Assembly: GCA_028282785.1 (NCBI GenBank)
Contig: JANQHE010000027.1
Coordinates: 54,587 to 118,586 of the forward strand
Length of the DNA: 64,000 nt
From: Bacteroidales bacterium
GTDB taxonomy: Bacteria; Bacteroidota; Bacteroidia; Bacteroidales; UBA12077
Direction of reading: 5' to 3'
The translations under genes were made by a program, and so were the position numbers. A model generated the notes under the pieces. That model was not told the origin of the DNA and did no database searches. It saw nothing but the letters and a program-made list of their open reading frames with translations. Positions 38,909 through 64,000 of this stretch are shown here, piece after piece; position 1 is the stretch's first letter, and each line of letters opens with the position of its first letter.

Positions 38909-39469
38909 TTTATAATAAGGTTGTCCAAAAAGTCCCGGATTCGTCATTATTCCCTAAGGTCATGAGAATAGTTCTGAACTCGTTTCAGGATCTATAATTA
39001 TCTGGTTATGAGATCTTGATATTTATTGGGACGCTCTGCTTAGTTTCCGCCTTGCATATCAACCTGACTGTCATGCCTTCGGCAGATGAATCGGCAGACA
39101 GGTCCACTGTGAGCAACATTACTAAGATAAAACTTTGTCAGCAAGGTACAAACTTAGCGAAGCGATTTCACGAATTTTGTGAGTAACTGAGCGCAGCGTT
39201 CTCATGAGGCTCGTTTTAACGAGACGAGTAAACCCCACATGGAGTTTGAGCAAGGCGTCTTACAAATTGGGTGCAAAAAGACAAACCATGTCTAATTAGT
39301 AATTAGACTGCTATAAAAACTAAAAACATTTTTTAAGGAGGGATTTATTACTTCTTTAATAACGATTTAGACTATGAGTTTGGCACTTAACTTAGCAAGT
39401 AGACACCAAGCTGAAAATCCTCACGGATTTTCAGAAGTAGGCGAGAACAAGCAATTACTTATAGCCATT
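38909..39469. repeat. Left boundary of the cassette array: degenerate attC-like repeats
   Basis: No gene is visible. A degenerate imperfect palindrome spans about 39030-39170: GCTTAGTTTCCGCCTTGC on the left mirrors GGTACAAACTTAGC on the right. Its TACTAAGATAAAACTTTGTCAGCAA recurs in the site at 62883-63006. A segment at 39184-39206 matches 30528-30550 in inverted orientation. A perfect 9-bp-arm palindrome GTCTAATTA-G-TAATTAGAC lies at 39290-39308. Confidence 0.55.
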
Positions 39470-39472
39470 GTT
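39357..39472 (-). repeat. attC-like site 1
   Basis: It runs from TAATAACG to GTT at 39470. The left half ACTATGAGTTTGGC mirrors GAACAAGCAATTACTTATAGCC on the right. An internal hairpin AAAATCC/GGATTTT lies at 39415-39432. The right core opens the cassette GTTGTAGCAC. Confidence 0.55.
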
Positions 39473-39484
39473 GTAGCACGTTTT

Positions 39485-39961
39485 TTACTTTTTTGAATAT
39501 CTAAAGTCACAATAGTCTGCATCCTCCATTATTGTTTGTGTTCTTTCCAATTTAATTTCAGGATTAAACCCTTCATTGAATGGGAAATCCCTGTCGCACG
39601 AAAGACATTTACCAAGCTCTTGAACATTCAACTTTTTGTATACTTCTGCATAACGACATTTAGTTACGTTAAAGTGAAATTCATTTTCCGTCTCTTTTAG
39701 AACGTCAATTAACATTGCTCCTTCATTACACCAAATGTCCCTAATCAACTGGGACAGTTCTGATATTCCGTTACCTTTAAATTCAATTGCTAGATTTCGA
39801 CCAGAATCAATTGCATCTTCTTCAATTATTTTAGACAAGATTTCAAGTGTCCTTTCTTTTCCTAGTTCCTTAATAAATCCATTGACTATGGCCGAAACTA
39901 TAGGAGCTTGAATCTCTCTACGTTTTATGTGACTAATTTTCATGTCTTTTTTACTTTCCAT
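39485..39961 (-). CDS. L-2-amino-thiazoline-4-carboxylic acid hydrolase-like protein
   Basis: The 158 residues match the ATC hydrolase-like family, which includes the enzyme opening L-2-amino-thiazoline-4-carboxylate in cysteine salvage. Features are the central CRYAEVYKKLNVQELG, LSCDRDFPFNEGFNP and the C-terminal TIMEDADYCDFRY. Conserved cysteines and aspartates suggest a metal- or thiol-dependent active site. It is the sole gene of the cassette 39470-39987. Its ATG lies 24 bp from the right core and its stop 15 bp from the left core. That is the compact fit expected of an integron cassette. Confidence 0.8.
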   Translation of the reverse strand: MESKKDMKISHIKRREIQAPIVSAIVNGFIKELGKERTLEILSKIIEEDAIDSGRNLAIEFKGNGISELSQLIRDIWCNEGAMLIDVLKETENEFHFNVTKCRYAEVYKKLNVQELGKCLSCDRDFPFNEGFNPEIKLERTQTIMEDADYCDFRYSKK

Positions 39962-39984
39962 GCAGTGATTTTTAAATGTGCTAC

Positions 39985-40103
39985 AACGGTTCTAATATGC
40001 GTAGTGGGGGATTTCAATGTTCCAAACTATCCGCTATACTGTCTAATAAATGTTATAAGTTTCAAATTAATCGAATCACTCCGCATTACGTATATTTTTT
40101 GTT
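39985..40103 (-). repeat. attC-like site 2
   Basis: It runs from AACGGTTCTAATATGCGTAGTGG to ATTACGTATATTTTTTGTT. The halves are imperfectly complementary, with a spacer of about 60 bp. It shares GCGTAGTG-GGATTTCA and TATATTTTTTGTTG with the site at 53951. Confidence 0.7.
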
Positions 40104-40112
40104 GGGCGTAGA

Positions 40113-40535
40113 TTACTTATCAGCAAGACTCTTTAGATATTCGTCCGGAGTCATTACCGGAATATCAGAACCTTTGAAGTCTTTCTCATTTCGGGTTATC
40201 AAAATATTGCAATCTAGTTTTATTGCACAATGATACTGTAATGCATCCTCAAAATCAGTAAACTTTGATGAAAGTCCCTTATTAATAATCCTGTCAGTTA
40301 AATCAGAAGTCTCTACAATCACCTTGAACTTGCGCAATTTTTCTTTTACAGCTTCACTATCCTCAAATTTTGATAACAAATAAAAAATAGTCGAGTAAGA
40401 TAAAGCAGATACAATCAGGTTTACGTTTCCTTTATCAGCCAGTGTCGCAATCTTTGCTGCGGAAGCATAAAAAGGCTCTCGCTCTCCTAGTAGATCTAAT
40501 ACAACATTAGTGTCTAAGAATAGCCTATCAATCAT
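40113..40535 (-). CDS. PIN-domain ribonuclease toxin (VapC-like)
   Basis: The 140-residue PIN domain has the acidic metal-binding residues Asp8 (FLDTNVVLDLL), a central glutamate and aspartates in DFEDALQYHCA and NILITRNEKDF. VapC toxins cleave tRNA or rRNA. The ATG overlaps the antitoxin stop by 4 bp (ATGA), so synthesis is coupled to the antitoxin. The pair fills the cassette 40101-40876. Toxin-antitoxin cassettes are common in large integrons, where they are thought to stabilise the array. Confidence 0.88.
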   Translation of the reverse strand: MIDRLFLDTNVVLDLLGEREPFYASAAKIATLADKGNVNLIVSALSYSTIFYLLSKFEDSEAVKEKLRKFKVIVETSDLTDRIINKGLSSKFTDFEDALQYHCAIKLDCNILITRNEKDFKGSDIPVMTPDEYLKSLADK

Positions 40536-40789
40536 TTATATTTCTCCATTAAATAGTCCGTATATGTTTTTTTGTAATCGAAATCAGCAGGTATCTTGAC
40601 ACCTGTCTGCATACTCTTAACAAAGGGAGAAATCTCAAAATTATCATCTGGCTCTTTAGAATCTTTATCGATCAATGACTTTAAATAAGCCTCAATCATC
40701 CTGGAAAGACTCTTTTTATGTGATGAAGCATACTCTTTTGCTTTATCAATCACCAATTTATCCAGTTTCAATGTCAACTTAGCATCCAT
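40532..40789 (-). CDS. DUF6364-like antitoxin of the PIN toxin
   Basis: The 85 residues begin with an RHH-type DNA-binding segment (AKLTLKLDKLVIDKAKEYASSHKKSLSRMIEAYL). The acidic C-terminal region (EISPFVKSMQTGVKIP...YLMEKYK) probably wraps the toxin. It is the first gene of the pair, overlapping the toxin gene by 4 bp. A promoter with an internal palindrome lies at 40815-40845, 26 bp upstream, which fits autorepression by the antitoxin. Confidence 0.85.
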   Translation of the reverse strand: MDAKLTLKLDKLVIDKAKEYASSHKKSLSRMIEAYLKSLIDKDSKEPDDNFEISPFVKSMQTGVKIPADFDYKKTYTDYLMEKYK

Positions 40790-40814
40790 AATTGCAAAAT
40801 TTATAATATACGTA

Positions 40815-40845
40815 CAAATATACGATAATTATCCGTACTTGTCAA
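40815..40845 (-). promoter_or_regulatory. Promoter and operator of the toxin-antitoxin cassette
   Basis: On the minus strand TTG (40843-40845) and TATATTTG (40815-40822) are 20 bp apart and match the -33/-7 consensus. Between them lies the perfect palindrome GATAATTATC (40824-40833), flanked by GTAC on both sides. This is well placed for repression by the RHH antitoxin. Confidence 0.65.
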
Positions 40846-40873
40846 GTTGCAGTACGATCAATAATTTACGCCC

Positions 40874-40996
40874 AACGGCTCGAATATGGGGCATTGGGCA
40901 ATTCAAAGCACCTCCGTTTCAAACCGCTTTTAGCTTATTAAATTGTACTCACTTTCCAAATTTGAACAATCCGTCCAATAATCTATATTTATTGTT
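40874..40996 (-). repeat. attC-like site 3
   Basis: It runs from GCCCAACGGCTCGAATATGG (a perfect RYYYAAC core) to TATATTTATTGTTAGGGC. It shares the interior CAAACCGCT...TTATTAAA with the site at 53951. Confidence 0.7.
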
Positions 40997-41051
40997 AGGG
41001 CAAATTTAACAGTTCAATTATATAGTATTTCTTTTCAATTATGTTAAGATA

Positions 41052-41513
41052 TTACTTTATAAGCTTTTCCAAATTTCCACGTTCACTTTTAACTATAGGG
41101 ACACCAGAACCATATATTGTATATTCTACTTTAAAATCATTATTATTAAGCCATATTACAAATCGACCTCCTGAAAAAACACCTTCTTCTAGTTCATATA
41201 TTAAAGATTCTTTACTGCCATTTATATATTTTGCATGAACAGGACCAGGTTCTATTGCTACCGTTTGACCATTTTCTGAGAATGAAATATCATAATAGAT
41301 ATCACCACTTGTATCTTCATAATCACTTTCCTGAAGATTGTCATTCGGAAATTGAACATCTGGATGATTTGAAACTCTGTCAATTTTAAGTATAAAATTA
41401 TTTCCGTTTAACAATGAAAACTCCGAAGTATCATTGTTATATGTTTCTTTATCGCACATAGTAAAAAATACAGAAACAACACTTAGACTTAGATAAATAA
41501 GTATTTTCTTCAT
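41052..41513 (-). CDS. Cassette-borne lipoprotein of unknown function
   Basis: About 153 residues starting at the second Met (MKKILIYLSLSVV). The signal ends in a lipobox-like FFTMC followed by DKE, so the mature protein is probably a lipoprotein starting at that cysteine. The rest is beta-rich with no recognised domain. It is the only gene in the cassette 40994-41630, whose ends are a 13/13 inverted match. I cannot assign a function. Confidence 0.65.
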   Translation of the reverse strand: MKKILIYLSLSVVSVFFTMCDKETYNNDTSEFSLLNGNNFILKIDRVSNHPDVQFPNDNLQESDYEDTSGDIYYDISFSENGQTVAIEPGPVHAKYINGSKESLIYELEEGVFSGGRFVIWLNNNDFKVEYTIYGSGVPIVKSERGNLEKLIK

Positions 41514-41627
41514 AACCATACAATTTTAATTATTAATAAATAAAATTTCCTCTCAAGTTTTTAGTATAGATTTCTAATAGTCTAAAGATGTATTTATTTG
41601 TTTAAAGGTTGTGTAATAATTTGCCCT

Positions 41628-41750
41628 AACGGTATTGTATATGAAAAGTAGCTGGTTTGAGAGTCACTATTTTTTCGGATAGCATAAATGTAAAAAAAGC
41701 GCAAGCTATAATAACTTGCGCTAAATTAGCTATTTTTTATATACGTTGTT
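41628..41750 (-). repeat. attC-like site 4, near-identical twin of the site at 52657
   Basis: It runs from AACGGTATTGTATATG to TATATACGTTGTT. Positions 41631-41751 match 52657-52777 with about six differences in 121 bp. A GCGCAAG/CTTGCGC hairpin sits in the spacer. Confidence 0.75.
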
Positions 41751-41872
41751 GTGCAGGCTTTTTTTGTTTTTTTGATCCGCTCTAATAGATGTATATACCT
41801 AACTGTTAGTAATGGCAGAACAGTTATAAATACTGAAATTATAAAACCTAAAAAATATGGCTTCGAACCTGT
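41726..41872 (-). pseudogene. Fragment of a membrane-protein gene abutting the attC-like site
   Basis: A 48-codon open stretch without a start codon encodes a membrane segment (SKPYFLGFIISVFITVLPLL) followed by basic residues. Its last dozen codons lie inside the attC-like site. It looks like the truncated 3' end of a lost cassette gene. The rest of the gap 41751-41961 shows nothing else. Confidence 0.35.
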
Positions 41873-41961
41873 TTATTTACCGGCCCAAGGAAAAGTCAAG
41901 AAACTCTCATTGGCAGTAATTAGCTGAGTGACTCATATTTTCATGACTAGATAATACTTGA

Positions 41962-43074
41962 TTATTTATATCTTTTATTTAGTATTTCAGCTAATTCTAT
42001 CGCTGTAATATTCCGGGCAATTATTTTTCCTTTTTCATCTATTAAGAAATTTGTCGGAAGTGCCACAACTTTGTACATGTTTTCTACAGTATCATCTTCC
42101 AATCTTGAGTGTACCCAGGGTAGATCATATTTTTTTATAGCTTTTTCCCAAAGGTTTTCTTTTTTATCCATGCTAATGCCCCAGATATTAAAACCCTTAT
42201 TTTTAAAAGTTGCATAGATATCCCTGAATTCAATATTTTCCTTAATACAAGGAAGACACCATGAGGCCCAAAAGTCTATCAGGACAATTCCACCTCTAAA
42301 ATCAGACAGACTTTGAGACTGATTATTGTCGTATCGATTCAGTGTGAAAACAGGAGCTACCCCACCAACCTGAATTTTCTTAGCCTCTTCAATCATATTA
42401 TGCAGTTTGATGGTAAAAGGAAAAGATGGCCGTTCTGTAATAAATGGTTTTTCCAATTCTTCAATATAAGGCAAGTATTTATTAAAATCTAAAGTTCTAA
42501 TAATTGCAAATAGTGCTAATGAAGAACCCATCGTAGACATTTGTTCATAAAGAGTTGTGGCAAATATTTTTAAATTCTCCTGATGTTCCTGTTCAACCGC
42601 ATTAATGCGTTGTTGATCGCCAGACTCTAATGCTGCTTTCATTTTAGATTCAAGAGGGTAAAGATATTTGTTTTGTAGATCTGCAACATTCAACAGATAA
42701 TCTTTGTATTGATTGGTAGCTTTGGATCCTTTTACTGTTATTGGGGGGAAAACATTAGTCTTAAAATCGATTTCGATTTCGATGCTATTACTATTATCAT
42801 TTATAAACTCAATGCCTTTATTCCCTAATTTAATCTTATAGAGATTTGGGCTATTGGGTATTTCAAATTCTACTGATCCCTGCTTGTTTAGAGCGAGATT
42901 TTCTTTGAATTTGTAGGTGTCAGAATTTAAGTGATACTCCCATAGTTCCAGGGGATATTGCTTGCCTGGCTTGGTTTCAAGTTTAACAGTTGTTTTTTGT
43001 GCTACTGTTGCATTAAAACTAAAAATGAAGGCTATTATCAGGCCTGTTAAAATTGCTGTTCTTTGTGTTTTCAT
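41962..43074 (-). CDS. TlpA/ResA-like periplasmic thioredoxin with N-terminal DUF4369-type domain
   Basis: The 370 residues have a signal peptide (about 1-25, ending VAQ). An N-terminal beta domain (about 28-120) and a helical linker lead to a thioredoxin domain (about 235-368) with the redox motif WCLPC and a cis-proline in ALPTNF. Such proteins reduce disulfides in the periplasm of Bacteroidota and are often linked to transport or stress responses. It follows the membrane AraC regulator by 133 bp in the cassette 41748-44416, which suggests that regulator controls it. Confidence 0.88.
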   Translation of the reverse strand: MKTQRTAILTGLIIAFIFSFNATVAQKTTVKLETKPGKQYPLELWEYHLNSDTYKFKENLALNKQGSVEFEIPNSPNLYKIKLGNKGIEFINDNSNSIEIEIDFKTNVFPPITVKGSKATNQYKDYLLNVADLQNKYLYPLESKMKAALESGDQQRINAVEQEHQENLKIFATTLYEQMSTMGSSLALFAIIRTLDFNKYLPYIEELEKPFITERPSFPFTIKLHNMIEEAKKIQVGGVAPVFTLNRYDNNQSQSLSDFRGGIVLIDFWASWCLPCIKENIEFRDIYATFKNKGFNIWGISMDKKENLWEKAIKKYDLPWVHSRLEDDTVENMYKVVALPTNFLIDEKGKIIARNITAIELAEILNKRYK

Positions 43075-43207
43075 GATCGTTTTTTTTGATACTATTTAAT
43101 ATTGTTTTTGGTTTCCAAGGCCAAAACTAAATAGTTCCAATGTTTCATAGTGCCAGAATTATGATTTGGTAATTCCTAAATAATCATTCAGGAATTGTTA
43201 ACGGAAA

Positions 43208-44308
43208 TCATAACTGGTTTTTGGATTGCTTATAGAATTCTGATGGGCTTTTGCCTGTAAATTTCTTAAATGCACTATTAAATGTGGAAGTTGATTGAAA
43301 GCCACTTTCATACATGACTTCTTTAATTAGCCAATCTTTTTGTTCCCGGATTAGAGATTTTGCGTTTTCAACTCTATAACTATTAATAAAATCGTTAAAA
43401 TTCATGTTTGAATTTTCATTAATAATCTGTGATAGTTCTGCTGATGTTATCTTTGACAAATTGGCTAATTGACTTAGTGAAAGCCTATACTCTATATAAG
43501 GCTTTTCATTTTCCATCAATTCAATTAGGCTCTCAAATAGAATTTTACTTTTTTCGGAAGAAATTTTAGACCTTCCGTATTTTATTTTTTTAGCATTAAA
43601 AACACCATCTTCTTCTTTTGAAATACCGGCAACTTGAATAGGAGCCAGAAGACTTTTAAAAGTGAGAATATTAATAAAGAGTAGTATGCTTATAAAAGAA
43701 AACAAGACGACCACAACATAATAATCTCCAAAATCAATAAACAAATACAAACTTTCAACATTAATTGTTATAAAAAAAGCACTTAACATGATGAGTTCTA
43801 TTTTCAACCATTTTAAATTATATAGATTGAAATTTGAACGCGTGAGCAAAATTGTTTTATGAAAATTACTAATAGTTCTAAAACTAAAGATGAGGTAAAC
43901 AAAAAGATATATAAATAATGGGAGGAAAAATAATTTTTCAAAATCAGAATCAATTATTTCAATGAAATTAGACTGTATCAACAATCTGGAAATAAAAAGA
44001 AGCAGAACGCCTAAAAAGTGAATAGAATCTTTGAATGACAAATTGAATTCTTTGTTAACCAGAGATTTGGTGTATAAAAATTGTAGAGGAGCTATAATAG
44101 CAATAAACTCATAATAGTAATATGGAAAACCTTCAATCCAATGAAATCTAATAAATAAATTTGTAAACAATAAAACTAATACACCAAGCAGGGCAGCGAG
44201 AATAACATTAGACTTTGAAGGAGTTCTATATAATAGAAAAGTTATATATAAACAGGTCTGAATAAAAAATGTCACCCCTAAAACCTCGAAGATGTTATAA
44301 ACTTCCAT
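43208..44308 (-). CDS. Membrane-spanning AraC-family transcriptional regulator
   Basis: The first 225 or so residues contain about seven hydrophobic helices. Residues about 260-362 form an AraC helix-turn-helix pair (SLSQLANLSKITSAELSQIINE and EVMYESGFQSTSTFNSAFKKFTGKSPSEFYK). The architecture implies signal sensing in the membrane with a cytoplasmic DNA-binding domain. It shares this layout with the regulator at 51015-52061. It lies directly upstream of the TlpA-like gene in the same cassette. Confidence 0.88.
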   Translation of the reverse strand: MEVYNIFEVLGVTFFIQTCLYITFLLYRTPSKSNVILAALLGVLVLLFTNLFIRFHWIEGFPYYYYEFIAIIAPLQFLYTKSLVNKEFNLSFKDSIHFLGVLLLFISRLLIQSNFIEIIDSDFEKLFFLPLFIYLFVYLIFSFRTISNFHKTILLTRSNFNLYNLKWLKIELIMLSAFFITINVESLYLFIDFGDYYVVVVLFSFISILLFINILTFKSLLAPIQVAGISKEEDGVFNAKKIKYGRSKISSEKSKILFESLIELMENEKPYIEYRLSLSQLANLSKITSAELSQIINENSNMNFNDFINSYRVENAKSLIREQKDWLIKEVMYESGFQSTSTFNSAFKKFTGKSPSEFYKQSKNQL

Positions 44309-44413
44309 TTATTAATTTTTAAAAATAAATAAGAGAAACTCCATAAATAGTAAAATCGAAATTAATATGAAAATCAGTTTTCTCAATTATTACCGATTTT
44401 TCAGCTTGCACAC

Positions 44414-44536
44414 AACGGCTAAGTATATGAAAAGTTGCCGACTACGATGTTCAAATCTTTCAATTAGCGATAGAGCTGAAACGAGCTGTAAATATTGAAT
44501 TTACTAATGTCTCGGCAATTTTGTGTATACATTGTT
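44414..44536 (-). repeat. attC-like site 5
   Basis: It runs from AACGGCTAAGTATATGAAAAG to TGTGTATACATTGTTACC. Left AGTTGCCGA mirrors right TCTCGGCAATT. An internal GAGCTGAAACGAGCT hairpin is visible. Confidence 0.65.
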
Positions 44537-44591
44537 ACCTGCTGGCATTTGCTATATAGATTTTCATTCCTTAAAAATAGTGTTTAATTCG

Positions 44592-44599
44592 TACATTTG
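44592..44599 (+). promoter_or_regulatory. Probable -7 element of the HNH endonuclease gene
   Basis: TACATTTG matches TAnnTTTG. With a start at 44627 the leader is about 20 nt. The upstream candidate ATG at 44606 would be nearly leaderless. Confidence 0.45.
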
Positions 44600-44626
44600 T
44601 TTTTTATGATTCGAAAAATATTCAGA

Positions 44627-45601: not shown

Positions 45602-45613
45602 TAATCACTTTTG

Positions 45614-52272: not shown

Positions 52273-52656
52273 GCGTTTAACGGAGTTAATCGCATAATAG
52301 TCATTCATTCCTGAGCATTCTTTATATCAGTCTGTTTGCACATGTGCCGCAAGCATAAAGATAAACTTTAAATTGAAAAGATTACCTGAAAATTTTCATT
52401 TTATTCTTTTTTCAAAGCTGTTTATGTTAACCAGGTACTTGATTATTTAAAGGTAAATAAAATAAAATTTTCGATGCTCAGGATGAAAGCCGGAACGTTT
52501 ACAAAAATGAGAAGGCAAATGAGTTTATAGGTTTACCCATGAATTTATCCAATAATTTAAAAGAAAAATACTTAAGGTTCAATTATTTACAGTTTTAATC
52601 AATGGTTTGGTAAACCTAAACGGTTGACTTCGTCCGCTTGCGGCATTTTTGTAAAG

Positions 52657-52777
52657 GGTATTGTATATGAAAAGTGGCTGGTTTGAGAGTCGCTATTTTT
52701 TCGGATAGCATAAATGTAATAAAAGCGCAAGCTATAATAACTTGCGCTAAATTACCTATTTTTTATACACGTTGTTG
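52657..52777 (-). repeat. attC-like site 6, twin of the site at 41628
   Basis: It is almost identical to 41631-41751. The left AAC core is degraded to AAAGG. The right core GTTGAGT (52774) is a perfect GTTRRRY and opens the RidA/MarR cassette. Confidence 0.75.
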
Positions 52778-52803
52778 AGTGTAGTTTTTACAAAAACATC
52801 AAT

Positions 52804-53850: not shown

Positions 53851-53950
53851 AATTACGGAAAAAACCATATTTATTATTGTAACTCTATAAAATAATTAGT
53901 TATATATAATCAAATTCCTTTGGGAAATCAAGGTTGAAAATTACGGGGGT

Positions 53951-54073
53951 GACGGCTCGAATAAGCGTAGTGCGGGATTTCAGAGCACATCACTATCAAA
54001 CCGCTACATTGTTTATTAAATGTTACCATGCTTAAAATTAGCACTATCCGCCAAATGACTTATATTTTTTGTT
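53951..54073 (-). repeat. attC-like site 7
   Basis: It runs from GACGGCTCGAATAAGCGTAGTGCGG (core AAC changed to GAC) to GACTTATATTTTTTGTTG. It shares blocks with the sites at 39985 and 40874. Confidence 0.7.
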
Positions 54074-54707
54074 GTGTGCCGTATTTTTTTATTTCTCTTA
54101 TCAATTTCTTGGATTTAGTACTGTTTAAAATATCATTAAGAAAATCATTCACAACAATTTTGTCGATTACATCATTGTTAATTGAAAACAAAAGCTTTAG
54201 AAATGCAGATATAAGGAAATTTTGATGTTTTTCAGTATTATCATTTACTCTCAGTGAAGCAATAATCCTGAAAATAATATTTGTTGCAAGCTTAGGTTTC
54301 GCTTTAATAATTGTAGCCGAATTGCTGATACAATATTTAATCGTCGATATCTTTTCGTCAGCAAGTTGTTTGTAATAATCATCAATGATTTGCTCAAAAA
54401 GATTTTCCTTGTCCACAATTACTATGTTTGCTATCAACTCCATTCCATAATTTCTATGGTAAGAATTTTCGTAACTAAGTAAAGATGAGAAGTTATCCCA
54501 ATAATGATAAAATAGAGAAGGCTCTGTCTTTGTTACTTTATTAAGAATCAAATATGAGTGATAATAAACATTAATAGAATCGGTATTCAAAAGATGTTTA
54601 ACTAAAATGTCTCTGAAATCTTCTTGATTTATCGCTAAATTGAAATATGGAGAAATATCAGCGTTGGTCTCTGATACAATTTGCAAATATTTATTTTCAT
54701 CAGTCAT
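54060..54707 (-). CDS. Helical (HEAT-like) protein of unknown function
   Basis: The 215 residues are predicted all-alpha with repeated helix pairs, suggesting HEAT/ARM-like folding. No catalytic motif is seen. It is the only gene of the cassette 54071-54760, whose ends match 10/10. The final residues (GTQQKI) are encoded inside the attC-like core GTTGTGTGCC, so the stop lies 11 bp within the neighbouring site. Insertion of the cassette elsewhere would change the protein tail. Confidence 0.6.
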   Translation of the reverse strand: MTDENKYLQIVSETNADISPYFNLAINQEDFRDILVKHLLNTDSINVYYHSYLILNKVTKTEPSLFYHYWDNFSSLLSYENSYHRNYGMELIANIVIVDKENLFEQIIDDYYKQLADEKISTIKYCISNSATIIKAKPKLATNIIFRIIASLRVNDNTEKHQNFLISAFLKLLFSINNDVIDKIVVNDFLNDILNSTKSKKLIREIKKYGTQQKI

Positions 54708-54757
54708 ATTTGTTTAATAATATTAAAATTTAGCAGTATTGCTCTGATATGGCACAC

Positions 54758-54881
54758 AACTTTGTGTATGAATCTGTGCGGGAGTGCTGCCTTTTTTCAG
54801 TGTCCGCCGTGACGCTGAAACAAATATATTAATTATTTGTCAGACCGCCACAAACACCCGCCTTAAGTTTGTAAAAGTGTT
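54758..54881 (-). repeat. attC-like site 8
   Basis: It runs from AACTTTGTGTATGAATCTGTGCGGGAG to CACCCGCCTTAAGTTTG and core GTTAGGT (perfect GTTRRRY). The interior carries GTCCGCC and GACCGCC blocks. Confidence 0.65.
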
Positions 54882-54950
54882 AGGTTTTGTTTGAAGATTT
54901 AAGGAATAAATAATACATTCACATAATTGTTTTAGAAGAGATATATCATA

Positions 54951-56521: not shown

Positions 56522-56526
56522 AAGAG

Positions 56527-56889
56527 ATGGAGCAAATTAATACTAATCTGGTTTCGTATTGCGGATTTTACTGTGGTGCTTGTCCAACTTATATAAAAGG
56601 GAAGTGCGAAAGCTGTAAAGGAAATAGTCCAAAATGTGCTGTAGGTTACAAAGGATGCAAAGTCAGACCTTGTTGTATTGAAAAAGAAATAAGTTCTTGT
56701 GCGCATTGTAATGAATTCGATTCAGTAAAAGATTGTAATATTTATAATCCGTTCATGATAAGATTCGGTCAATTCATAACAAGAACGAATCGGAGAAAAG
56801 GAATTGAAATGATTAAGAAGAAAGGAGAAGTTGAATTTGTCAAGTTTATGACTTCTAAAAATTGGGTAACAATTAAAAATAAAGGTTAA
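56527..56889 (+). CDS. DUF3795 cysteine-rich protein
   Basis: The 120 residues carry the DUF3795 cysteine pattern (YCGFYCGACPTYIKGKCESCKGN, CAVGYKGCKVRPCCIEK, CAHCNEF) with about a dozen cysteines likely binding zinc or an iron-sulfur centre. The function is unknown. It starts 5 bp after the AlkD-like gene, and the two are almost certainly cotranscribed. Confidence 0.85.
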   Translation: MEQINTNLVSYCGFYCGACPTYIKGKCESCKGNSPKCAVGYKGCKVRPCCIEKEISSCAHCNEFDSVKDCNIYNPFMIRFGQFITRTNRRKGIEMIKKKGEVEFVKFMTSKNWVTIKNKG

Positions 56890-57172
56890 TTTGCTTTAGT
56901 AAAACACAAATGCAGCTGAAAGCCTGCCTAGCCGTCAGGCAGGTTGCAAAAAGCGGGCGGGCAAAAAATGTTTTACTATCAAACTTACAAAACCATTCAA
57001 TATAAATACCTTTCCAACTGCTAAGAATTAGAAATAAATACTATTATAGTCAGACCGTAATATATTTTACTATTTGCAAAAAACTGTCAAACTGTTAATT
57101 AAGATTTTTGATTTTAAAACACTGAAAAAATGAGTAGCAGTTTACCATTTCTGAAAAAATCGCTTTATTTGT
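56890..57172. other. Gap with a REP-like palindrome
   Basis: There is no gene. GCCTGCC...GGCAGG (about 56925-56942) forms a GC-rich palindrome akin to the one near 30745. Confidence 0.4.
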
Positions 57173-57303
57173 AACGGTCTTTGGGCATGAAGCTGTGCGG
57201 GAGTTACTTTACTACTTTATCAGTCAACCCGCCAAAAACCTTAACGAATATAATACTTAGTCAGTAAACTAACAAGAACCTGTATGCTTTATGACGCCAT
57301 TTT
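57173..57303 (-). repeat. attC-like site 9
   Basis: It runs from AACGGTCTTTGGGCATGAAG to TATGACGCCATTTT (core GTT changed to TTT). The block CCTTAACGAATATAATACTTAGTCAG is shared with the sites at 59134 and 59913. Confidence 0.7.
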
Positions 57304-58114: not shown

Positions 58115-58151
58115 GTTTATAAATTTTAAAAGTGATGCAATAATGCACAGT

Positions 58152-58282
58152 AAAGATCCTTGTTTACCCTATCGTTTGGGAGTCACATCAATTTTGCTAT
58201 CAGATCGTTTTTAATCAAACTCGAAGATACCAAAACTTTGTCAAACCGCAAAGTACGTCCAAATGTAGGGTGAAACAATGTT
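58152..58282 (-). repeat. attC-like site 10
   Basis: It runs from AAAGATCCTTGTTTACCC (core AAC decayed to AAA) to GGGTGAAACAATGTTACC. Left GTTTACCCTAT mirrors right GTAGGGTGAAAC. GCACAGTAAA pairs 9/10 with the cassette start TTTAATGTGC. Confidence 0.55.
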
Positions 58283-58297
58283 ACCTGTTGTGCCTAT

Positions 58298-59110
58298 TTA
58301 CTGTAGCCAATCAGAACGCCATTGTGAAAAATCTATTTCCTTATCAATATTATACGAAGAAGTTAATGTATTTACCATATCAATTATCATTTGCTTTAAA
58401 TCTTCCATAACATGCCCACCAGTCATTGTAGAAACAATTGTCCCGCCAGTCCCAGCTCCATCAGGCTCTAATGCTAATCTATACCATTCGAATTTAGATG
58501 ATATAATCTCATTAAAATATTCATTAGGTAACTGATTTCCAAAGTGTCCTTTAGGATAAAAAGACGATAATTCAATTAAAACTTCTTCATAAAAATCAAT
58601 CATATCATAGCTACCACCATTCACCTTTACTGTTATCCCTGTATCCCACTTTTCTTGAGCTACAACTAATTGTTTTTGATGAATTGTCAAAATATTTCGA
58701 ATATAATCTTTGAGCAAATCTGGGTCATCATTAGTTTTATAAGCTACAATATTATCAACCAATTTGTCAGTAGCAATTATTGTCTTTGTAGAACCAGTTA
58801 CTGTCTCAATAGAAGCTATTTCATCAGCTTTTTTTTTCCTTTTCTTTACTCGCTCAATCCATTCCTTTCGATATTTGATAATCTGATTAGCGTTAAGTTT
58901 TCTCCCAAATCCGCCATTAATCATTGTTTCATTATGACATTCCAAACATAATACAGCTAAATTATCTATGGAGTTATTTGAAGGATTCTCGTCAATATGG
59001 TGTATCTGAACAGCTTTTCCCCTTGTAGAACAAATACAACATGTCCTATCTGAAAGAAATAATATTTCAGCTGCAATATCATCTGGTATTTCTACTCTTT
59101 TTTTTGGCAT
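58298..59110 (-). CDS. HNH endonuclease domain protein
   Basis: The 270 residues have an N-terminal HNH domain (about 20-65; CCICSTRGKAVQIHHIDENP, NSIDNLAVLCLECHNE) with the two zinc CxxC pairs and the catalytic HH. The C-terminal 190 residues are helical and unassigned. It could be a restriction or anti-phage nuclease, but there is no methyltransferase in its cassette (58280-59136). The stop is 15 bp from the left core. Confidence 0.8.
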   Translation of the reverse strand: MPKKRVEIPDDIAAEILFLSDRTCCICSTRGKAVQIHHIDENPSNNSIDNLAVLCLECHNETMINGGFGRKLNANQIIKYRKEWIERVKKRKKKADEIASIETVTGSTKTIIATDKLVDNIVAYKTNDDPDLLKDYIRNILTIHQKQLVVAQEKWDTGITVKVNGGSYDMIDFYEEVLIELSSFYPKGHFGNQLPNEYFNEIISSKFEWYRLALEPDGAGTGGTIVSTMTGGHVMEDLKQMIIDMVNTLTSSYNIDKEIDFSQWRSDWLQ

Positions 59111-59133
59111 TTTCGTTTCTTGGCATTACTTAT

Positions 59134-59262
59134 AACGATTTTTGGGTATGAAGCTGTGTGGGAACTATTCTCTCACTTTGTCAGTCAAACCGTAAAACCT
59201 TAACGAATATAATACTTAGTCAGGATACAACCAAACACCCGCATGCTTTATGACCCAATGTT
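59134..59262 (-). repeat. attC-like site 11
   Basis: It runs from AACGATTTTTGGGTATGAAG to TATGACCCAATGTTATAA. It shares CCTTAACGAATATAATACTTAGTCAG with its neighbours. Confidence 0.72.
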
Positions 59263-59277
59263 ATAAATTGTAGGCTT

Positions 59278-59886
59278 TTATTTACTTGTCAAATTATTCA
59301 ATGTAATTTCAAAGTAATAGGCAAAACTATCTGTCGTATCAATTACTCCACTTTTATATCCCTTAAAATAAATTCTATCCTTATTAGGTAGATATAAAAC
59401 TTTTTTTGGAATAAAGTCATTACTATAAGGTTCAATAGAAAAAAATAAAGTATCATTTTTGATTTGATATCCTCCAGTTTTGCTTTCTTGATAAAAAAAC
59501 ATGCCAGTTGATGTCATTTCAAATGAATTATTTTCTCTAAGTATTAAATCAATTCGACTTAAGTCATCAATCAATTCAGCTTTTAAAACTATTTCAGATT
59601 TAAATAACTCAGAATTTATCATGATAGACATACCTGTCAGTAAAATTACCAGTCCATGAGTTATTAGTTCTGCTTTAGATTTAACAAAACCTTTTCGTAT
59701 CCAATTGCTGATTGAAATAATCAAGGTGATGACAAACCCCGAATTAAGAGGAAGTAAAATTCACCGAAAGACAATTATAAAAACCCACAAACTGGGAAAG
59801 TATTCAGTCATAGTCCATAAAAGAATACTTAGAGAAAATAAAATTGAAAATAGCAAAAAGAAGGTTTTTTTCTTTGAAAGTATCAT
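59278..59886 (-). pseudogene. Cassette membrane-protein gene with an in-frame TGA
   Basis: One frame runs from ATG 59886 (MILSKKKTFFLLFSILFS) to the stop at 59278, interrupted only by TGA at 59761-59763 (codon 42). Downstream of it the longest frame begins with TTG at 59724. The full product would be about 200 residues with three hydrophobic segments and a beta-rich C-terminal half. A nonsense mutation is the simplest reading. The family is unknown. Confidence 0.6.
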
Positions 59887-59912
59887 ATTGTGTTTTTAAA
59901 AGCGCTATTATT

Positions 59913-60043
59913 AACGGTCCTGGCGTATGAATGCGTAGGGGAGTTACTTTCCTACCTTGTCAGTCAGCCCGCCAAAAACCTTAACGAATATAATATTTAG
60001 TCAGCATACAACCAAACGCCAGCATGCTTTATGACGCCATGTT
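59913..60043 (-). repeat. attC-like site 12
   Basis: It runs from AACGGTCCTGGCGTATGAATG to TATGACGCCATGTTAGCGG. It shares CGCCAAAAACCTTAACGAATATAAT with the site at 57173. Confidence 0.72.
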
Positions 60044-60114
60044 AGCGGTTGAATTATACAAAAAAGCTCATTCAAATGATGAACGAGCAATTAAAAATAT
60101 GCACTATTTTTTTA

Positions 60115-60552
60115 CTATTTTTTAGCTGGTAACCAAAGAGGACCGACAAAAGATAATAAAACTAGTATGTTCCATAATGCATTAGAAGCATGTCCACCTG
60201 CTATCGATCCTAAACTGTCAAGTACGAACCATGAGCACAAGCCTATCAAGACGGCTCTTCTTACCATTTCAGGTGCTTTGTCATAAACCAAAGAAGATAG
60301 AGACCAAATAGTTGCTCCGTATCCTAATAGGAAACCGCCAAGCAGAGCGGAAAGGAATCTAGAAGTAGAATCATTGAGAGTTTCTTGACCGTCTAATGGC
60401 CAACTAAGAATATCTAAAGTCCAGCGTCCTGGTTCAGCGAATTCAGGCATTGTGGCTAAAAAGCAAATAGGACCAAAACAGGCAACTAAGAATCCTGTTA
60501 CTTTTAGGTATTTTTTGTGAAATTTTTGTGTTCTATAAAAAGGTATTTGCAT
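60115..60552 (-). CDS. Small membrane protein, unknown family
   Basis: The 145 residues have four hydrophobic segments (about 18-36, 65-85, 100-118 and 123-141). No family is recognised beyond a general resemblance to small DUF4267/DUF4345-type membrane proteins. It is the last of three genes in the cassette 60041-61580, 13 bp after the next membrane-protein gene, so it probably belongs to the TetR operon. Confidence 0.6.
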   Translation of the reverse strand: MQIPFYRTQKFHKKYLKVTGFLVACFGPICFLATMPEFAEPGRWTLDILSWPLDGQETLNDSTSRFLSALLGGFLLGYGATIWSLSSLVYDKAPEMVRRAVLIGLCSWFVLDSLGSIAGGHASNALWNILVLLSFVGPLWLPAKK

Positions 60553-60565
60553 AGTTATTGTAAAA

Positions 60566-60925
60566 TTAATGGTTTACTCTATCCCCAAGTAAAATTGCTT
60601 TCCAGTCTTCCTTTTCTTTATAACTCAATATCAACAAGTATGGAGCAAAAAACAAGATTCCAAAAATTAAAGCAATTACACCTAAAAGCATCCCTTGCAA
60701 TGAGAAATTCTTTCTCCATGCTACCCAAAGTCCCGAAAGGATCAAGTATGTTTGGAAGTCAAAAATAAACTGTCCGCTCCAAGTGAAACTAAGCATTCCA
60801 CCAAAAAAAGGAGTGACTAAATCATAACCGTAGTTAGCAATGGTTGATACTGTATATGCACATATTCCAATAAAAAATAAAACCAAAAGAGTTCTAAATG
60901 CATTCATTCTTTCTAATATTTTCAT
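60566..60925 (-). CDS. Small membrane protein, unknown family
   Basis: The 119 residues have four hydrophobic segments with SYKEKEDWKAILLGDRVNH at the end. It lies 76 bp downstream of the TetR-type gene and 13 bp upstream of another small membrane-protein gene. The pair may form one membrane unit repressed by the TetR protein (inference). Confidence 0.6.
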   Translation of the reverse strand: MKILERMNAFRTLLVLFFIGICAYTVSTIANYGYDLVTPFFGGMLSFTWSGQFIFDFQTYLILSGLWVAWRKNFSLQGMLLGVIALIFGILFFAPYLLILSYKEKEDWKAILLGDRVNH

Positions 60926-61001
60926 TTTATGGCAAAATTACCATTACAAACATCTTGAAAAAATGAGATAGATTTTAGACGGTTCCGTACAATGTAGAAC
61001 T

Positions 61002-61547
61002 TTAATCGGTTTTCTTAATACCTGAAACCATTAACTGAATTTCTTTGAAGTAATTTAAAAGCCAATCAAAAGTCAACGTTTTTTTGGTTATTTGAAGATA
61101 AAAATTTTCCAAAACCAGTCCTAAAACAACTTGAGCGATACTTAAATTATCAGAAAGTCCTATTTCCTTTGCCCAAAGCATTAAAATTGCTTCTCCAACT
61201 AGTTTATTGGACTTTTCAAAACAATTATTAAATGACTCTACTGATCTATTTATTCTTAGTTGCCTGTTGAAAAGCAAATCTTGCTTAACATCAATAAGAA
61301 CATTGATTAACTCTGGATTAATATTTTTGCAGGAACCTTCACGCTGAGCTATAATTTTTGCTCTTTCCAGATGATAGTCAAGTAAATGTCCTGTAAAAAC
61401 TTCCAAATCAGCAAAGTGATGATAAAATGACGATTTGCTTTTCTTTACTTTTCTGGAAATAACTTCAACTTTTAATCCTTGTGGTCCGTCATCGGCAAAT
61501 AATTCATATCCAGCTAAAATCCATGGTTGCATATTTTCGTTTTTCAT
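61002..61547 (-). CDS. TetR-family transcriptional regulator
   Basis: The 181 residues begin with the TetR HTH (PWILAGYELFADDGPQGLKVEVISRKVKKSKSSFYHHFADLE). The ligand-binding helical core that follows is poorly conserved. The start is 31 bp from the right cassette core (61578-61580). It heads the operon with the two membrane-protein genes. Confidence 0.88.
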   Translation of the reverse strand: MKNENMQPWILAGYELFADDGPQGLKVEVISRKVKKSKSSFYHHFADLEVFTGHLLDYHLERAKIIAQREGSCKNINPELINVLIDVKQDLLFNRQLRINRSVESFNNCFEKSNKLVGEAILMLWAKEIGLSDNLSIAQVVLGLVLENFYLQITKKTLTFDWLLNYFKEIQLMVSGIKKTD

Positions 61548-61618
61548 AATCTTTCAGATTTGGATAATATTACCGCTAACCTTTAGATTAGCTATCTAAA
61601 GATTTTGTTATTAAACTT

Positions 61619-61691
61619 AAAGATCTCTGGGGTGCACTATGCGTTAACAAAGCTATTGGCTTAAGGAGCGATTAAGACCCCAGAAATCTTT
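61619..61691 (+). ncRNA. Candidate bridge-RNA hairpin of the IS110 element
   Basis: Fifteen-nt arms (61619-61633, 61677-61691; 14 of 15 pair) enclose a 43-nt loop that contains GCGTTAAC, resembling the GTT/AAC attC core. IS110 elements encode a structured guide RNA in this upstream position. Assignment is by position and structure only. Confidence 0.4.
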
Positions 61692-61785
61692 ATACCCAGC
61701 GAATCAGTTCAAATAGATATTAAAGCATAAGGCTTATTATTAAGGTTTTGAAAAGTTCGCTCATTATTAACTTACAAGTAAAATT

Positions 61786-62806
61786 ATGAAAAAAACTCCA
61801 CAATCCGCTTCCCTGTTTATAGGAATTGATTTTTCCAAGCTAACTCTTGATATCACATGGATTAATTCTCAATCAAACTCAAAGAAGTATCTGCAAGTAG
61901 CAAATAATAGTAGTGGCTTGGAACAAATGAATAATTGGTTAATAAAATCTAAAGATTTTCAATATGCCAGAACAATTTTCTGTTTTGAACATACTGGCAT
62001 GTATACAAGAATTTTATTAGATTATTTACTGACAAAATCTGCTCATATTTGGATGGAATCTTCCTTGCATATAAAAAATAGTCTCGGCTTAAATCGAGGT
62101 AAAAATGATAAAATAGATTCATATCGAATTGCAGAATATGCTTATAGATTCTCAGATAAAGCATCTTTTGTTGAAAACAATTCTTCAGAAATAATTTTAT
62201 TAAAAGATTTGCTAAGCGCCAGAAACAGACTTAAGAAGTCCTTGCAACAGATTCACGTAACCATCAAAGAACTGACAAAGATTGATCAGCAACAAGGTAA
62301 ACACTTAGAACTACTCAATCTTCAAGCTATAAGAGGACTAAAAGCTAGCATCCAACAAATAGAAGAAAAAATTCATCAGGTTATAGAGGCAAGTGCACAG
62401 CTCAAGGAGGTATATAACTTGATGATTAGTATTCCTGGTTCCTGGTGTGGGATTTATTCTAGCTACTAAATTATTAGTCTATACGAAAGTTTTTACTTGT
62501 TTTGGTAATGTTCGTCAATTAGCCTGTTACTGTGGAGTAGCACCATTTGAATATCGATCAGGAACCTCGATTAAAGGTAAAACCGGGGTCTCAAAATTTG
62601 CCAACATGGACTTGAAAGCCACACTACATCTGGCTGCAATATCAGCTATTCAACACAATGTTGAATTAAAGAAATACTATCAACGCAAAGTTGAAGAAGG
62701 TAAAAGCAAAATGTCAGTAATTAATGCTGTCAGGAACAAATTATTAGCAAGAATAGTAGCTGTTGTAAACAGGAATACTCCATATGTACAATTGGCAAAT
62801 GCTTAA
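61786..62806 (+). pseudogene. IS110-family DEDD transposase split by a 7-bp duplication
   Basis: The N-terminal part (to 62469) has the RuvC-like DEDD residues (GIDFSKLTLDI, FEHTG, KNDKIDSYRIAEYA). The C-terminal part (frame from 62447) has the Tnp_20 serine region (GVAPFEYRSGTSIKGK). They are in different frames because TTCCTGG is present twice in tandem (62432-62438, 62439-62445). Removing one copy joins SIPG to VGFILATKL and gives about 337 residues. Confidence 0.85.
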
Positions 62807-62882
62807 AAAAATATAGAAATTATATAATTCCCTAATTAATTATATAATTTCTAATAAATAAATTTGGATTTATCATAGATAT

Positions 62883-63006
62883 CGGTCCGCGGTTTTGTTA
62901 CGTGCGGGTTTTTCGCTCCGTTTCATCATCCACCGCTGAACACTTTACTAAGATAAAACTTAGTCAACAAACCACCAAAACCCCTCATGTAATAAGAACC
63001 GCTGTT
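62883..63006 (-). repeat. attC-like site 13 (interrupted by the IS)
   Basis: The part right of the IS runs from CGGTCCGCGGTTTTGTTACG to AATAAGAACCGCTGTTAGC. TAAGATAAAACTTAGTCAACAA is also found, slightly changed, near 39140. Its left core AAC is at 61578-61580. Confidence 0.7.
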
Positions 63007-63017
63007 AGCAGTTGTAT

Positions 63018-63455
63018 TTATGAAATTCGTTTTTCAATTATTCCAACAATTTTGTCAATCGCTTTCTTAGTACCAGTCAACAAAGTAATTTTATATTTAT
63101 TATTTATTTCAATAATTAATTGATAATTTTTTACAGAAGTATCATAAGAACCAACAGGTAAAGAGTAATTAGACTTTACTTTCTTCGATTTTATATCATA
63201 TCCAGAAATATCTGTAAGTTTAATTCTTCTCTTAACTTTATAAAGTATCTTGAAACCAGAATAAATAATAAATTCATTATCAGACTTCTTATACTTTATC
63301 CCAAAGTGATGTCCAATCAAAATAAGAATTAAAACTGAACCAATCACCCCATACAAGAATTCCAAAGATAAAAACTGAACTATTGTTGGAATTACCAGAA
63401 GCATTGCTAAAAAGAAGGTATAAACTGTATTTCTTTTATAAATAGTCTTTTGCAC
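63018..63455 (-). CDS. Membrane protein with a PH-like domain, unknown function
   Basis: The 145 residues have two N-terminal membrane helices (about 10-30 and 33-50) followed by a beta-rich domain of about 90 residues (YKKSDNEFIIYSGFKILYKVKRRIKLTDISGYDI) resembling bacterial PH domains of the YdbS/YcxB group. It is 11 bp downstream of the secreted-protein gene at 63467 in the cassette 63004-63905. Confidence 0.6.
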   Translation of the reverse strand: MQKTIYKRNTVYTFFLAMLLVIPTIVQFLSLEFLYGVIGSVLILILIGHHFGIKYKKSDNEFIIYSGFKILYKVKRRIKLTDISGYDIKSKKVKSNYSLPVGSYDTSVKNYQLIIEINNKYKITLLTGTKKAIDKIVGIIEKRIS

Positions 63456-63466
63456 AATTACAAAAT

Positions 63467-63889
63467 TTATTTCTTTAATTTATATTTCTGTTCACGCACA
63501 AGTTGTTCTTTATAAACTGGCAAAATCTTATTCTTTTTCTTTACAAATTTATCAAAACGGTCATACTGTGTCCATGTGGAATCTGATTCAGGTATAATAA
63601 ATTTATTCATATGTAAAATTAAAGAGTCTTTATTTTCACTCCATGAACCCTTCTCTTCATATGAAATCCACAATCCATCTGTACCAAATATTCTTCTATA
63701 ATAAGAACTATCTGAATAAAGAACAACCTTATCAGTATAGTTATATACTTTCTTAAATGTCAGTTTATACCTAATTTTTTTGAGTGTACTTGCATCCAAT
63801 TTCATGTAGTTATATTCTCGGTCAATTTCTTGCCCAGATAAGTCAATTAAACTGAAAGCAATGATTATAATTAGTGCGATTTTTTTCAT
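63467..63889 (-). CDS. Secreted protein of unknown function
   Basis: The 140 residues have a signal peptide (about 1-19, ending LSGQ) and a short beta-rich mature domain reminiscent of lipocalin-like folds (LWISYEEKGSWSENKDSLILHM). No family is recognised. It is the first gene of its cassette, 14 bp from the right core ACTGGTAAC (63897-63905), which pairs 8/9 with the cassette start GTTAGCAGT. Confidence 0.6.
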   Translation of the reverse strand: MKKIALIIIIAFSLIDLSGQEIDREYNYMKLDASTLKKIRYKLTFKKVYNYTDKVVLYSDSSYYRRIFGTDGLWISYEEKGSWSENKDSLILHMNKFIIPESDSTWTQYDRFDKFVKKKNKILPVYKEQLVREQKYKLKK

Positions 63890-63902
63890 AAATATTACTG
63901 GT

Positions 63903-64000
63903 AACGGCAGTCTGTCTAAAAAGCTTTTATAAAAGTAATATTTTTGAACAACAAAGCGCCAATGTAGCGTGGTATTTAAGTAAACAATAATCTATCAGTT
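63903..64000 (-). repeat. attC-like site 14, running off the window
   Basis: It starts AACGGCAGTCTGTCTAAAAAGC. The array continues beyond the right edge. Confidence 0.55.

What the first reader, a model, noticed from the sequence alone, without database searches (positions are those of the whole stretch)
39030..64000. Integron-like cassette array of at least 25 kb without a visible integrase
About fourteen palindromic sites of 120-130 bp bounded by AAC and GTT alternate with one-to-three-gene modules. The decisive sign is module-specific complementarity between the two ends of the same module: 13/13 at 40994-41630, 10/10 at 39470-39987, 40101-40876 and 54071-54760, 9/9 at 60041-61580, 8/9 at 63004-63905. 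In integron cassettes the R' core piece and the R'' core piece of one attC sit at opposite ends of the linear cassette, which gives just this pattern. A family of palindromic repeats inserted at random would instead pair its own two ends. Bacteroidota cassette arrays are poorly described, so this may be a little-known integron lineage or another recombinase using attC-like hairpins.
Basis: partly seen in the sequence, partly recalled or inferred. Interest (0 to 1): 0.93.

Follow-up and report, generated by a model that had tools for sequence, protein, structure and literature searches.

The report
Integrons run by a different integrase
This bacterium, likely one of the Bacteroidota, carries long rows of gene cassettes whose hairpin sites also follow, here and in relatives, the gene of a Xer-like recombinase that lacks the extra domain marking integron enzymes, so it is likely an overlooked second kind of integron, a system that would let these bacteria swap genes.

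Summary
The stated end matches are exact, and 7 of 13 modules have complementary ends against 1 of 156 mismatched pairs. A covariance model built only from other genomes finds 13 sites in the window, all on one strand at 39353-63015.

The window has no integrase, but contig C53 of the same genome has a 364-aa tyrosine recombinase followed by an array of the same site family. In 25 loci of relatives, 62 of 63 sites found lie downstream of this recombinase on its strand.

An attI-like motif follows the gene in 16 of 22 loci with sites; in 14 of these 16 its GTT flank pairs with the far end of the first cassette (mismatched 11 of 240). Two Chryseobacterium plasmids are near-identical up to this GTT and unrelated after it.

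The recombinase lacks the roughly 42-residue IntI domain (51 of 51 proteins; present in 32 of 32 IntI).

So it is built like an integron, but its enzyme fails the defining IntI test. Recombination itself, and use of a folded single strand, are inferred. Nine open-access searches showed no description of such arrays.

The parts
39353..39481 (-). site S0 (degenerate attC-like site; distal end of the array)
   Evidence: R2 21.1 bits, E 0.059; GTT end pairs 10/10 with the far end of the next module
39485..39961 (-). cassette ORF, ATC_hydrolase family (PF14196)
   Evidence: stop 12 nt from the site
39977..40112 (-). site S1
   Evidence: R2 45.7 bits
40113..40789 (-). cassette with a PIN-domain toxin-like gene and a DUF6364 partner (toxin-antitoxin-like pair)
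   Evidence: ends 10/10
40866..41005 (-). site S2
   Evidence: by eye; ends of both neighbouring modules pair 10/10 and 13/13; not reported by R2
41052..41519 (-). cassette ORF, no Pfam family
41620..41759 (-). site S3
   Evidence: R2 34.0 bits; the most stable single fold (plus strand z -3.4)
44406..44545 (-). site S4
   Evidence: R2 34.7 bits
52241..52345 (-). site S6 (degenerate)
   Evidence: R2 25.2 bits, E 0.008
52646..52785 (-). site S7, 95% identical to S3
   Evidence: R2 25.8 bits; repeat D4
53943..54082 (-). site S8
   Evidence: R2 30.8 bits
54060..54707 (-). cassette ORF, no Pfam family
   Evidence: ends 10/10
54750..54890 (-). site S9
   Evidence: R2 55.6 bits
57165..57312 (-). site S10
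   Evidence: R2 77.2 bits
57302..58114 (-). cassette ORF, putative esterase (PF00756)
   Evidence: ends 9 of 10
58144..58291 (-). site S11
   Evidence: R2 58.5 bits
58298..59110 (-). cassette ORF, HNH-type
59126..59271 (-). site S12
   Evidence: R2 97.8 bits
59905..60052 (-). site S13
   Evidence: R2 85.7 bits
60115..61547 (-). three-gene cassette (two ORFs without a Pfam family and a TetR-type regulator)
   Evidence: ends 9 of 10
62873..63015 (-). site S14, main part; its last bases (GTT flank) lie at 61578-61580, split off by the insertion
   Evidence: R2 111.9 bits
61581..62877 (+). IS110-family element inserted at the proposed crossover point (ACCG|GTT) of S14; transposase at 61786-62806 in two overlapping frames; element ends placed by eye
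63018..63889 (-). two-ORF cassette, no Pfam family
   Evidence: ends 8 of 10
63903..64000 (-). site S15, interrupted by a repeat at the contig end (63902-64000 identical to C40:1-99 reversed)

Best explanation
The window holds a cassette array of what is likely a Bacteroidota integron, whose attC-like sites are likely recombined at G|TT by a Xer-like tyrosine recombinase that lacks the IntI additional domain and is encoded on another contig of the same genome, directly before an attI-like site and a second array of the same site family. Shown: the recombinase gene, the attI-like sequence behind it, the shared site family, the complementary ends of modules, covarying hairpin arms, one main gene direction, and a natural breakpoint at the GTT of the attI-like site in two plasmids. 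Inferred: that this recombinase performs the recombination; that excised modules are circles in which the two ends meet and form the outer stem of the hairpin; that the substrate is one folded strand; and that an N-terminal domain of about 70 residues replaces the missing IntI domain in holding the hairpin. Not resolved: whether the window's array and the array on C53 are one array, because both contigs end in or next to arrays.
For: Recombinase and array: L010:6756-7850 is followed on its own strand by sites from L010:8449 on. In same-genus G601 the recombinase gene is followed by 17 sites on its strand. Model R1 (own sites) on 20 recombinase loci of the order: 32 hits in 9 loci, all downstream and on the recombinase's strand. 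Model R2 on 25 loci: 62 of 63 hits downstream and on the same strand, in 15 of 19 loci with at least 1.5 kb downstream. Seven of those 15 helped train R2; of the other 12 loci, 8 have sites.

attI: a motif ending in AGTT lies behind the gene in 19 of 45 loci (2.15 expected from shuffles), against 0 of 49 upstream and 1 of 31 IntI loci. It was read from 12 of those 45 (9 have it); of the 33 others 10 have it. In 22 recombinase loci with a site downstream, 16 have the motif, and in 14 of the 16 its GTT flank matches the end of the first cassette in 8 or 9 of 9 positions; mismatched pairs do so in 11 of 240.

Breakpoint: the two Chryseobacterium plasmids. Module ends: 21 of 41 modules in this genome against 80 of 1640 mismatched pairs and 2 of 52 sites' own two ends; in other genomes 55 of 62 against 215 of 3782 and 6 of 76; 0 of 20000 permutations in both.

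Arms: 93.6% of cells paired, covariation 0.763 against 0.135 shuffled, slid versions 29-42% paired. Genes: in six array loci 46 of 52 modules under 2.5 kb have their longest ORF in the array direction, 38 of those ending beside the next site. Positions R220, K245, H309, R312, H335 and Y344 are invariant in 50 proteins.
Against: The IntI domain said to be needed for integron recombination is absent. Most single sites do not fold better than shuffles. The attC bodies of two cassettes shared between genomes are no more alike than random site pairs (0.637 against 0.62; 0.655 against 0.70), although classical cassettes carry their attC along. In the order, 14 of 28 genomes with R1 sites have no recombinase at the cut-off used. 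Six of 22 loci lack the attI motif (L098, L101, L102, L105, L153, L165), and L164 and L172 fail the end test unless a 38-bp first module is counted. Four of 19 loci show no R2 site on the expected side (L088, L100, L103, L173), and in L103 the one site is upstream on the other strand. Recombinases of this broad family also occur on Acinetobacter and Klebsiella plasmids, matching only from residue 113-116 on, there perhaps in another role.
Confidence: 0.85

Rival explanations
1. An ordinary cluster of attC sites left behind by a lost classical integron (CALIN), formerly or still served in trans by a classical IntI.
For: The genome has no IntI over the curated cut-off. Classical IntI occurs in the phylum (105 of 395 genomes) and rarely in the order (2 of 198); G578 has both a classical IntI and one site of this family.
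Against: The same site family sits behind another recombinase with its own attI-like site in many genomes. Models R1 and R2 find nothing in ten loci around classical IntI genes of the phylum, although a training-free scan finds site-like pairs in 6 of those ten (20 pairs in all, 3 in shuffles).
Confidence: 0.08
2. Modules moved by the host Xer system or as small transposon-like units with their own terminal inverted repeats; the hairpins between them are only spacers or terminators.
For: Many modules are flanked by an inverted repeat of about 7-13 bp, and the site bodies do not travel with shared genes in two cases.
Against: The repeats differ from module to module but sit at fixed points of the covarying hairpin, and the attI-like site behind the recombinase pairs with the first module in the same way. 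A transposon would not predict this.
Confidence: 0.05
3. A repeat family (REP or MITE-like hairpins) scattered between genes, with no cassette behaviour.
For: Sites are palindromic and repeated; S3 and S7 are 95% identical.
Against: A palindromic repeat should pair its own two ends; that happens in 2 of 52 and 6 of 76 sites, while module ends pair in 21 of 41 and 55 of 62.
Confidence: 0.02

Closest known systems
Integrons with IntI integrase (mobile and sedentary chromosomal integrons)
   Same: Tyrosine recombinase gene beside an attachment site with a GTT core; array of cassettes with attC-like hairpins; complementary cassette ends; genes mostly in one direction with the stop beside the site; found on chromosomal contigs and on plasmids.
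   Different: The recombinase has 70-71 residues where IntI has 112-113 and usually an extra N-terminal domain. Its gene points the same way as the cassettes (in class 1 integrons it points away; recalled). Of 77 sites, AACA is in 77, CGT in 77 and CGTT in 75; a one-base bulge is in 56. By eye the spacer next to the core is uneven, about 1 against 5 nt.
CALIN elements (clusters of attC sites lacking IntI; term from PMC9024848, passages read)
   Same: The window alone would be filed as one if its sites were recognised: many sites, no IntI.
   Different: The genome has a recombinase with an attI-like site and the same sites; a CALIN is defined by absence.
Xer recombinases (XerD, XerC, archaeal XerA)
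   Same: Close by sequence and fold: archaeal Xer 4a8e, IntI4 2a3v and XerA 5hxy lead both searches; no IntI domain.
   Different: Below the curated cut-offs: XerA 198.7 of 220 bits, XerD 173.1 of 329.6, XerC 164.8 of 335.15. The genome's own XerD is a separate gene (350.3 bits).
'Integron-like' subgroup of tyrosine recombinases (PMC8138268, passages read)
   Different: The passages read describe no cassette arrays, attI or attC sites for proteins without the insertion.

Membership tests
Integron (IntI type) | Integrase with the IntI-specific additional domain | tested here: not met
   70-71 residues in 51 of 51 proteins of the new family against 112-113 in 32 of 32 IntI; TIGR02249 score 193.3 against a cut-off of 265
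Integron (IntI type) | Tyrosine recombinase with intact catalytic residues | tested here: met
   R220, K245, H309, R312, H335, Y344 invariant in 50 aligned proteins; that these are the catalytic positions is recalled. Some relatives are broken
Integron (IntI type) | attI site beside the integrase gene with a GTT insertion point | tested here: met
   by sequence only, motif in 16 of 22 loci with sites
Integron (IntI type) | attC sites: AAC/GTT cores and a structure-conserved hairpin | tested here: met
   AAC in 77 of 77, GTT in 75 of 77 (alignment fitted to model R1); covariation
Integron (IntI type) | Two extrahelical bases on one arm | tested here: inconclusive
   one single-base bulge in 56 of 77 sites on the R'' arm; a second one was not established
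Integron (IntI type) | Cassette: module ends complementary, so that a circle restores the site | tested here: met
Integron (IntI type) | Cassettes move as units with junctions at G|TT | tested here: met
   one natural attI breakpoint and one shared cassette starting at GTT; but site bodies are not shared
Integron (IntI type) | Recombination of the folded bottom strand | not testable with these tools
   needs an experiment
Integron (IntI type) | Promoter Pc and SOS control of the integrase | not tested
   not examined
attC as defined by the IntegronFinder covariance model | Score above that model's threshold | not testable with these tools
   the model is not held here; Rfam has no match in the array
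CALIN | attC cluster with no IntI | tested here: met
   no IntI over the cut-off in the genome; but another recombinase with the same sites is present
XerC/XerD/XerA | Score above the curated cut-off | tested here: not met

The most novel reading that the evidence does not exclude
A second class of integrons, common in Bacteroidota on chromosomes and plasmids, evolved or kept without the IntI domain: a Xer-type recombinase captures gene cassettes through attC-like hairpins, with an N-terminal domain resembling the junction-binding HARP and XPB domains doing the work of the missing IntI helix. It would be either the state from which IntI arose or an independent invention of the integron.
Probability: 0.6. 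Interest if true: 0.95.

Novelty: new variant of a known kind. Interest (0 to 1): 0.9.

Why it matters
Integrons are defined, and searched for, by IntI with its additional domain. In the passages I read, IntegronFinder 2.0 reports for Bacteroidetes only cassette-less In0 elements in its earlier survey and now one complete integron, in Salinibacter, beside those in Chlorobi and Ignavibacteriae (PMC9024848). If the arrays here are active, a large bacterial phylum has a cassette-capture system that current tools would likely miss or file as integrase-less remnants. It also makes an open question testable: whether the IntI domain is needed to recombine a folded strand, or whether a Xer-type enzyme can do it in another way, which bears on how integrons arose.

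Tried and rejected

Literature: nine searches of the held open-access library, judged by their listings, showed no paper on cassette arrays with such a recombinase in Bacteroidota; one search lists 25 of 60. Subscription papers and preprints are not held. For PMC9024848, PMC8618304, PMC2426708, PMC7784347, PMC9668308, PMC4792948, PMC8138268 and PMC3053210 I saw passages found by search terms, not the whole text; of the others, listings and abstract beginnings only.

Full report
What is there. The window is G000:C57:54587-118586 and ends exactly at the contig end. From about 39.35 kb to the end, sites of about 120-150 bp alternate with modules of one to a few genes, most on the minus strand with their stop codons next to a site: of 12 minus-strand ORFs that I picked, 8 end within 30 nt of a GTT end. 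Model R2, built from 78 sites of other genomes, finds 13 sites in the window, all minus strand, none in the first 39 kb, and none in ten loci around classical IntI genes.

The recombinase. The genome (5.5 Mb, 81 contigs, completeness 100) has no IntI over the curated cut-off. Its best match to the IntI family is a 364-aa tyrosine recombinase on C53 (L010:6756-7850), followed on the same strand by sites of the window's family. Model R1 (five C53 and four window sites) finds 47 matches in the genome at E up to 1, with 150 of 909 candidates scored, clustered on C53 (56.4-76.6 kb, behind the recombinase), C57, C55, C37, C40, C1 and others; several clusters lie at contig ends. Assembly therefore seems to break in these arrays, and whether the window's array continues the one on C53 is open. 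The window's last 99 bases equal the reversed start of C40.

Same layout in relatives. Homologues at E up to 1e-60 are in 46 of 198 genomes of the order and 13 of 25 of the family. On 20 recombinase loci, R1 gives 32 hits in 9 loci, all downstream and on the recombinase's strand. On 25 loci, R2 gives 63 hits, 62 of them downstream and on the same strand, with 199 kb held downstream and 108 kb upstream; 15 of 19 loci with at least 1.5 kb downstream have sites. Seven of the 15 helped train R2; of the other 12 loci, 8 have sites. In G601 the recombinase is followed by 17 sites in about 17 kb, with mostly one gene between sites. Named carriers of the recombinase with sites behind it are Flavobacterium xueshanense, F. 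macacae and the plasmid of Chryseobacterium sp. SNU WT5; in the C. oryzae plasmid R2 found no site within 9 kb. R1 sites at E up to 1e-4 occur in 28 of 198 genomes of the order, with 15 candidates scored per genome; 14 of these are among the 46 with the recombinase, 14 are not (overlap counted by hand).

attI. In six same-genus genomes the sequence behind the stop codon is conserved up to AAAC(A/T)AGTTA; in the five that go on it is variable after that, and the sixth ends there. A motif of this kind occurs downstream in 19 of 45 loci (shuffle expectation 2.15; four loci too short were left out), upstream in 0 of 49, and behind IntI in 1 of 31. Twelve of the 45 were among the loci from which I read the motif (9 have it); of the other 33, 10 have it. 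Of 22 recombinase loci with a known downstream site, 16 have a motif, and in 14 of these the nine bases from its GTT on match the reverse complement of the first cassette's far end in 8 or 9 positions; mismatched pairs do so in 11 of 240. The two failures, F. macacae (L164) and the SNU WT5 plasmid (L172), share a first module that is a 38-bp hairpin without a gene; the next module's flank then matches in 8 and 9 of 9. In the two Chryseobacterium plasmids the recombinase gene is 96.2% identical and identity runs on to CATATAAACAAGTT, where it stops; beyond lie different genes.

Cassette ends. In this genome 21 of 41 modules match at 5 or more of 6 positions outside the core, against 80 of 1640 mismatched pairs and 2 of 52 sites' own two ends; one site is listed twice among the 52. 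In other genomes it is 55 of 62 against 215 of 3782 and 6 of 76, after two cut sites were dropped. No permutation of 20000 reached either value. This is what a cassette model needs: in the excised circle the two ends meet and form the outer stem of the site. That step is inferred.

Site structure. In nine sites, 12 of 17 predicted pairs have compensatory changes. In 78 sites of other genomes 93.6% of cells pair, covariation is 0.763 against 0.135 in shuffles, and slid versions pair 29-42%; this alignment was fitted to the structure of R1, so the slid and shuffled controls matter. Of 77 sites read, AACA is in 77, CGT in 77, the second T of GTT in 75. A single base (C in 55, T in 1, absent in 21) bulges on the R'' arm between an invariant pair and one that is always A-T or T-A. 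In classical attC two extrahelical bases lie on one side of the folded strand (PMC3053210, passages); a second one was not established here. Single folds are weak.

Not an IntI. Between the conserved DR and RHSYATH motifs, 51 of 51 proteins of the new family have 70-71 residues and 32 of 32 IntI have 112-113. Passages I read call this domain specific to integron integrases and involved in single-strand binding (PMC7784347) and necessary for integron-mediated recombination (PMC9668308). They also name the residues that hold the extrahelical bases in the V. cholerae enzyme (PMC3053210); that most of these lie in or near the missing stretch is inferred, as that protein was not aligned here. The recombinase is below the cut-offs of IntI, XerA, XerD and XerC. 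PMC8138268 (passages) noted an integron-like subgroup whose insertion is not fully conserved. The tree leaves open whether the new family is sister or ancestral to IntI.

N-terminal domain. A W-S...W pattern marks a domain of about 70 residues in 43 of 52 proteins in frame; in two of the nine others that I looked at (L093, L105) it lies in another frame, so those genes look broken. AlphaFold2 gives a confident small domain (mean pLDDT 87.7). The best fold matches are archaeal XPB and SMARCAL1 HARP, both weak. I take this as a lead: a junction-binding domain would explain how an enzyme without the IntI helix could hold a hairpin.

Movement of cassettes. A two-ORF module that by eye looks like a toxin-antitoxin pair is shared between G000 (L133:10254-10931) and G597 at 81% and starts exactly at GTT in both. 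Another is shared by G598 and G597 at 79%, up to the R'' end. The site bodies behind the two shared modules are no more alike than random pairs, which the classical picture does not predict; gene conversion among sites is one possible reason.

Verdict. On the features that sequence could test, it looks like an integron except for the enzyme's defining domain and a second extrahelical base that was not established. I therefore call it a new variant of a known kind and not a member of the IntI integrons.

Noticed in passing
window 61581-62877: An IS110-family element sits at the proposed crossover point (ACCG|GTT) of site S14. IS110-family elements that target attC sites are known (IS1111-attC group; recalled, not looked up).
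   Followed up: partly
window 63902-64000; L128:16550-17277; L099:6116-6138: Elements with an end like CAGNCTGTCTAAAAA start directly behind CCG or AACGG of sites in this genome and in G563; the C53 copy has a transposase-like frame that looks like IS1182 (recalled).
   Followed up: partly
L133:10864-11022 and L153:15062-15205; L150:9176-9318 and L153:13133-13275: attC bodies behind shared cassettes are no more alike than random site pairs, while the genes are about 80% identical.
   Followed up: partly
window 56888-57202; L128:7976-8363; L149:9389-9811 and 11850-12233; L153:6441-6871; L154:17109-17539: A site followed by about 220-290 bases of shared sequence recurs in several genomes at 67-87% identity; perhaps a gene-less cassette or a promoter part.
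   Followed up: no
L172 and L164, directly behind attI: First module is a 38-bp hairpin without a gene, like an empty cassette.
   Followed up: partly
L163, L164, L093, L105: Recombinase genes with broken frames: in F. xueshanense a stop falls at the position of the catalytic tyrosine; in F. macacae the end is out of frame; in L093 and L105 the N-terminal part lies in another frame. Described only.
   Followed up: partly
L172:15738-17437: A group II intron with maturase lies in the cassette region of the Chryseobacterium sp. SNU WT5 plasmid.
   Followed up: no
G578:C389 and G401:C50: The only two classical IntI genes over the cut-off among 198 genomes of the order examined; G578 also has one site of the new family.
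   Followed up: no
plasmid hits H6-H20: Relatives matching only from residue about 88-116 on, mostly on Acinetobacter, Klebsiella and Aeromonas plasmids, one named TnpF; their role was not examined.
   Followed up: no
order-level hits: By eye, many recombinase genes lie a few hundred bases from a contig end with the 3' side towards it, as expected if assembly breaks in the repeats behind them.
   Followed up: no
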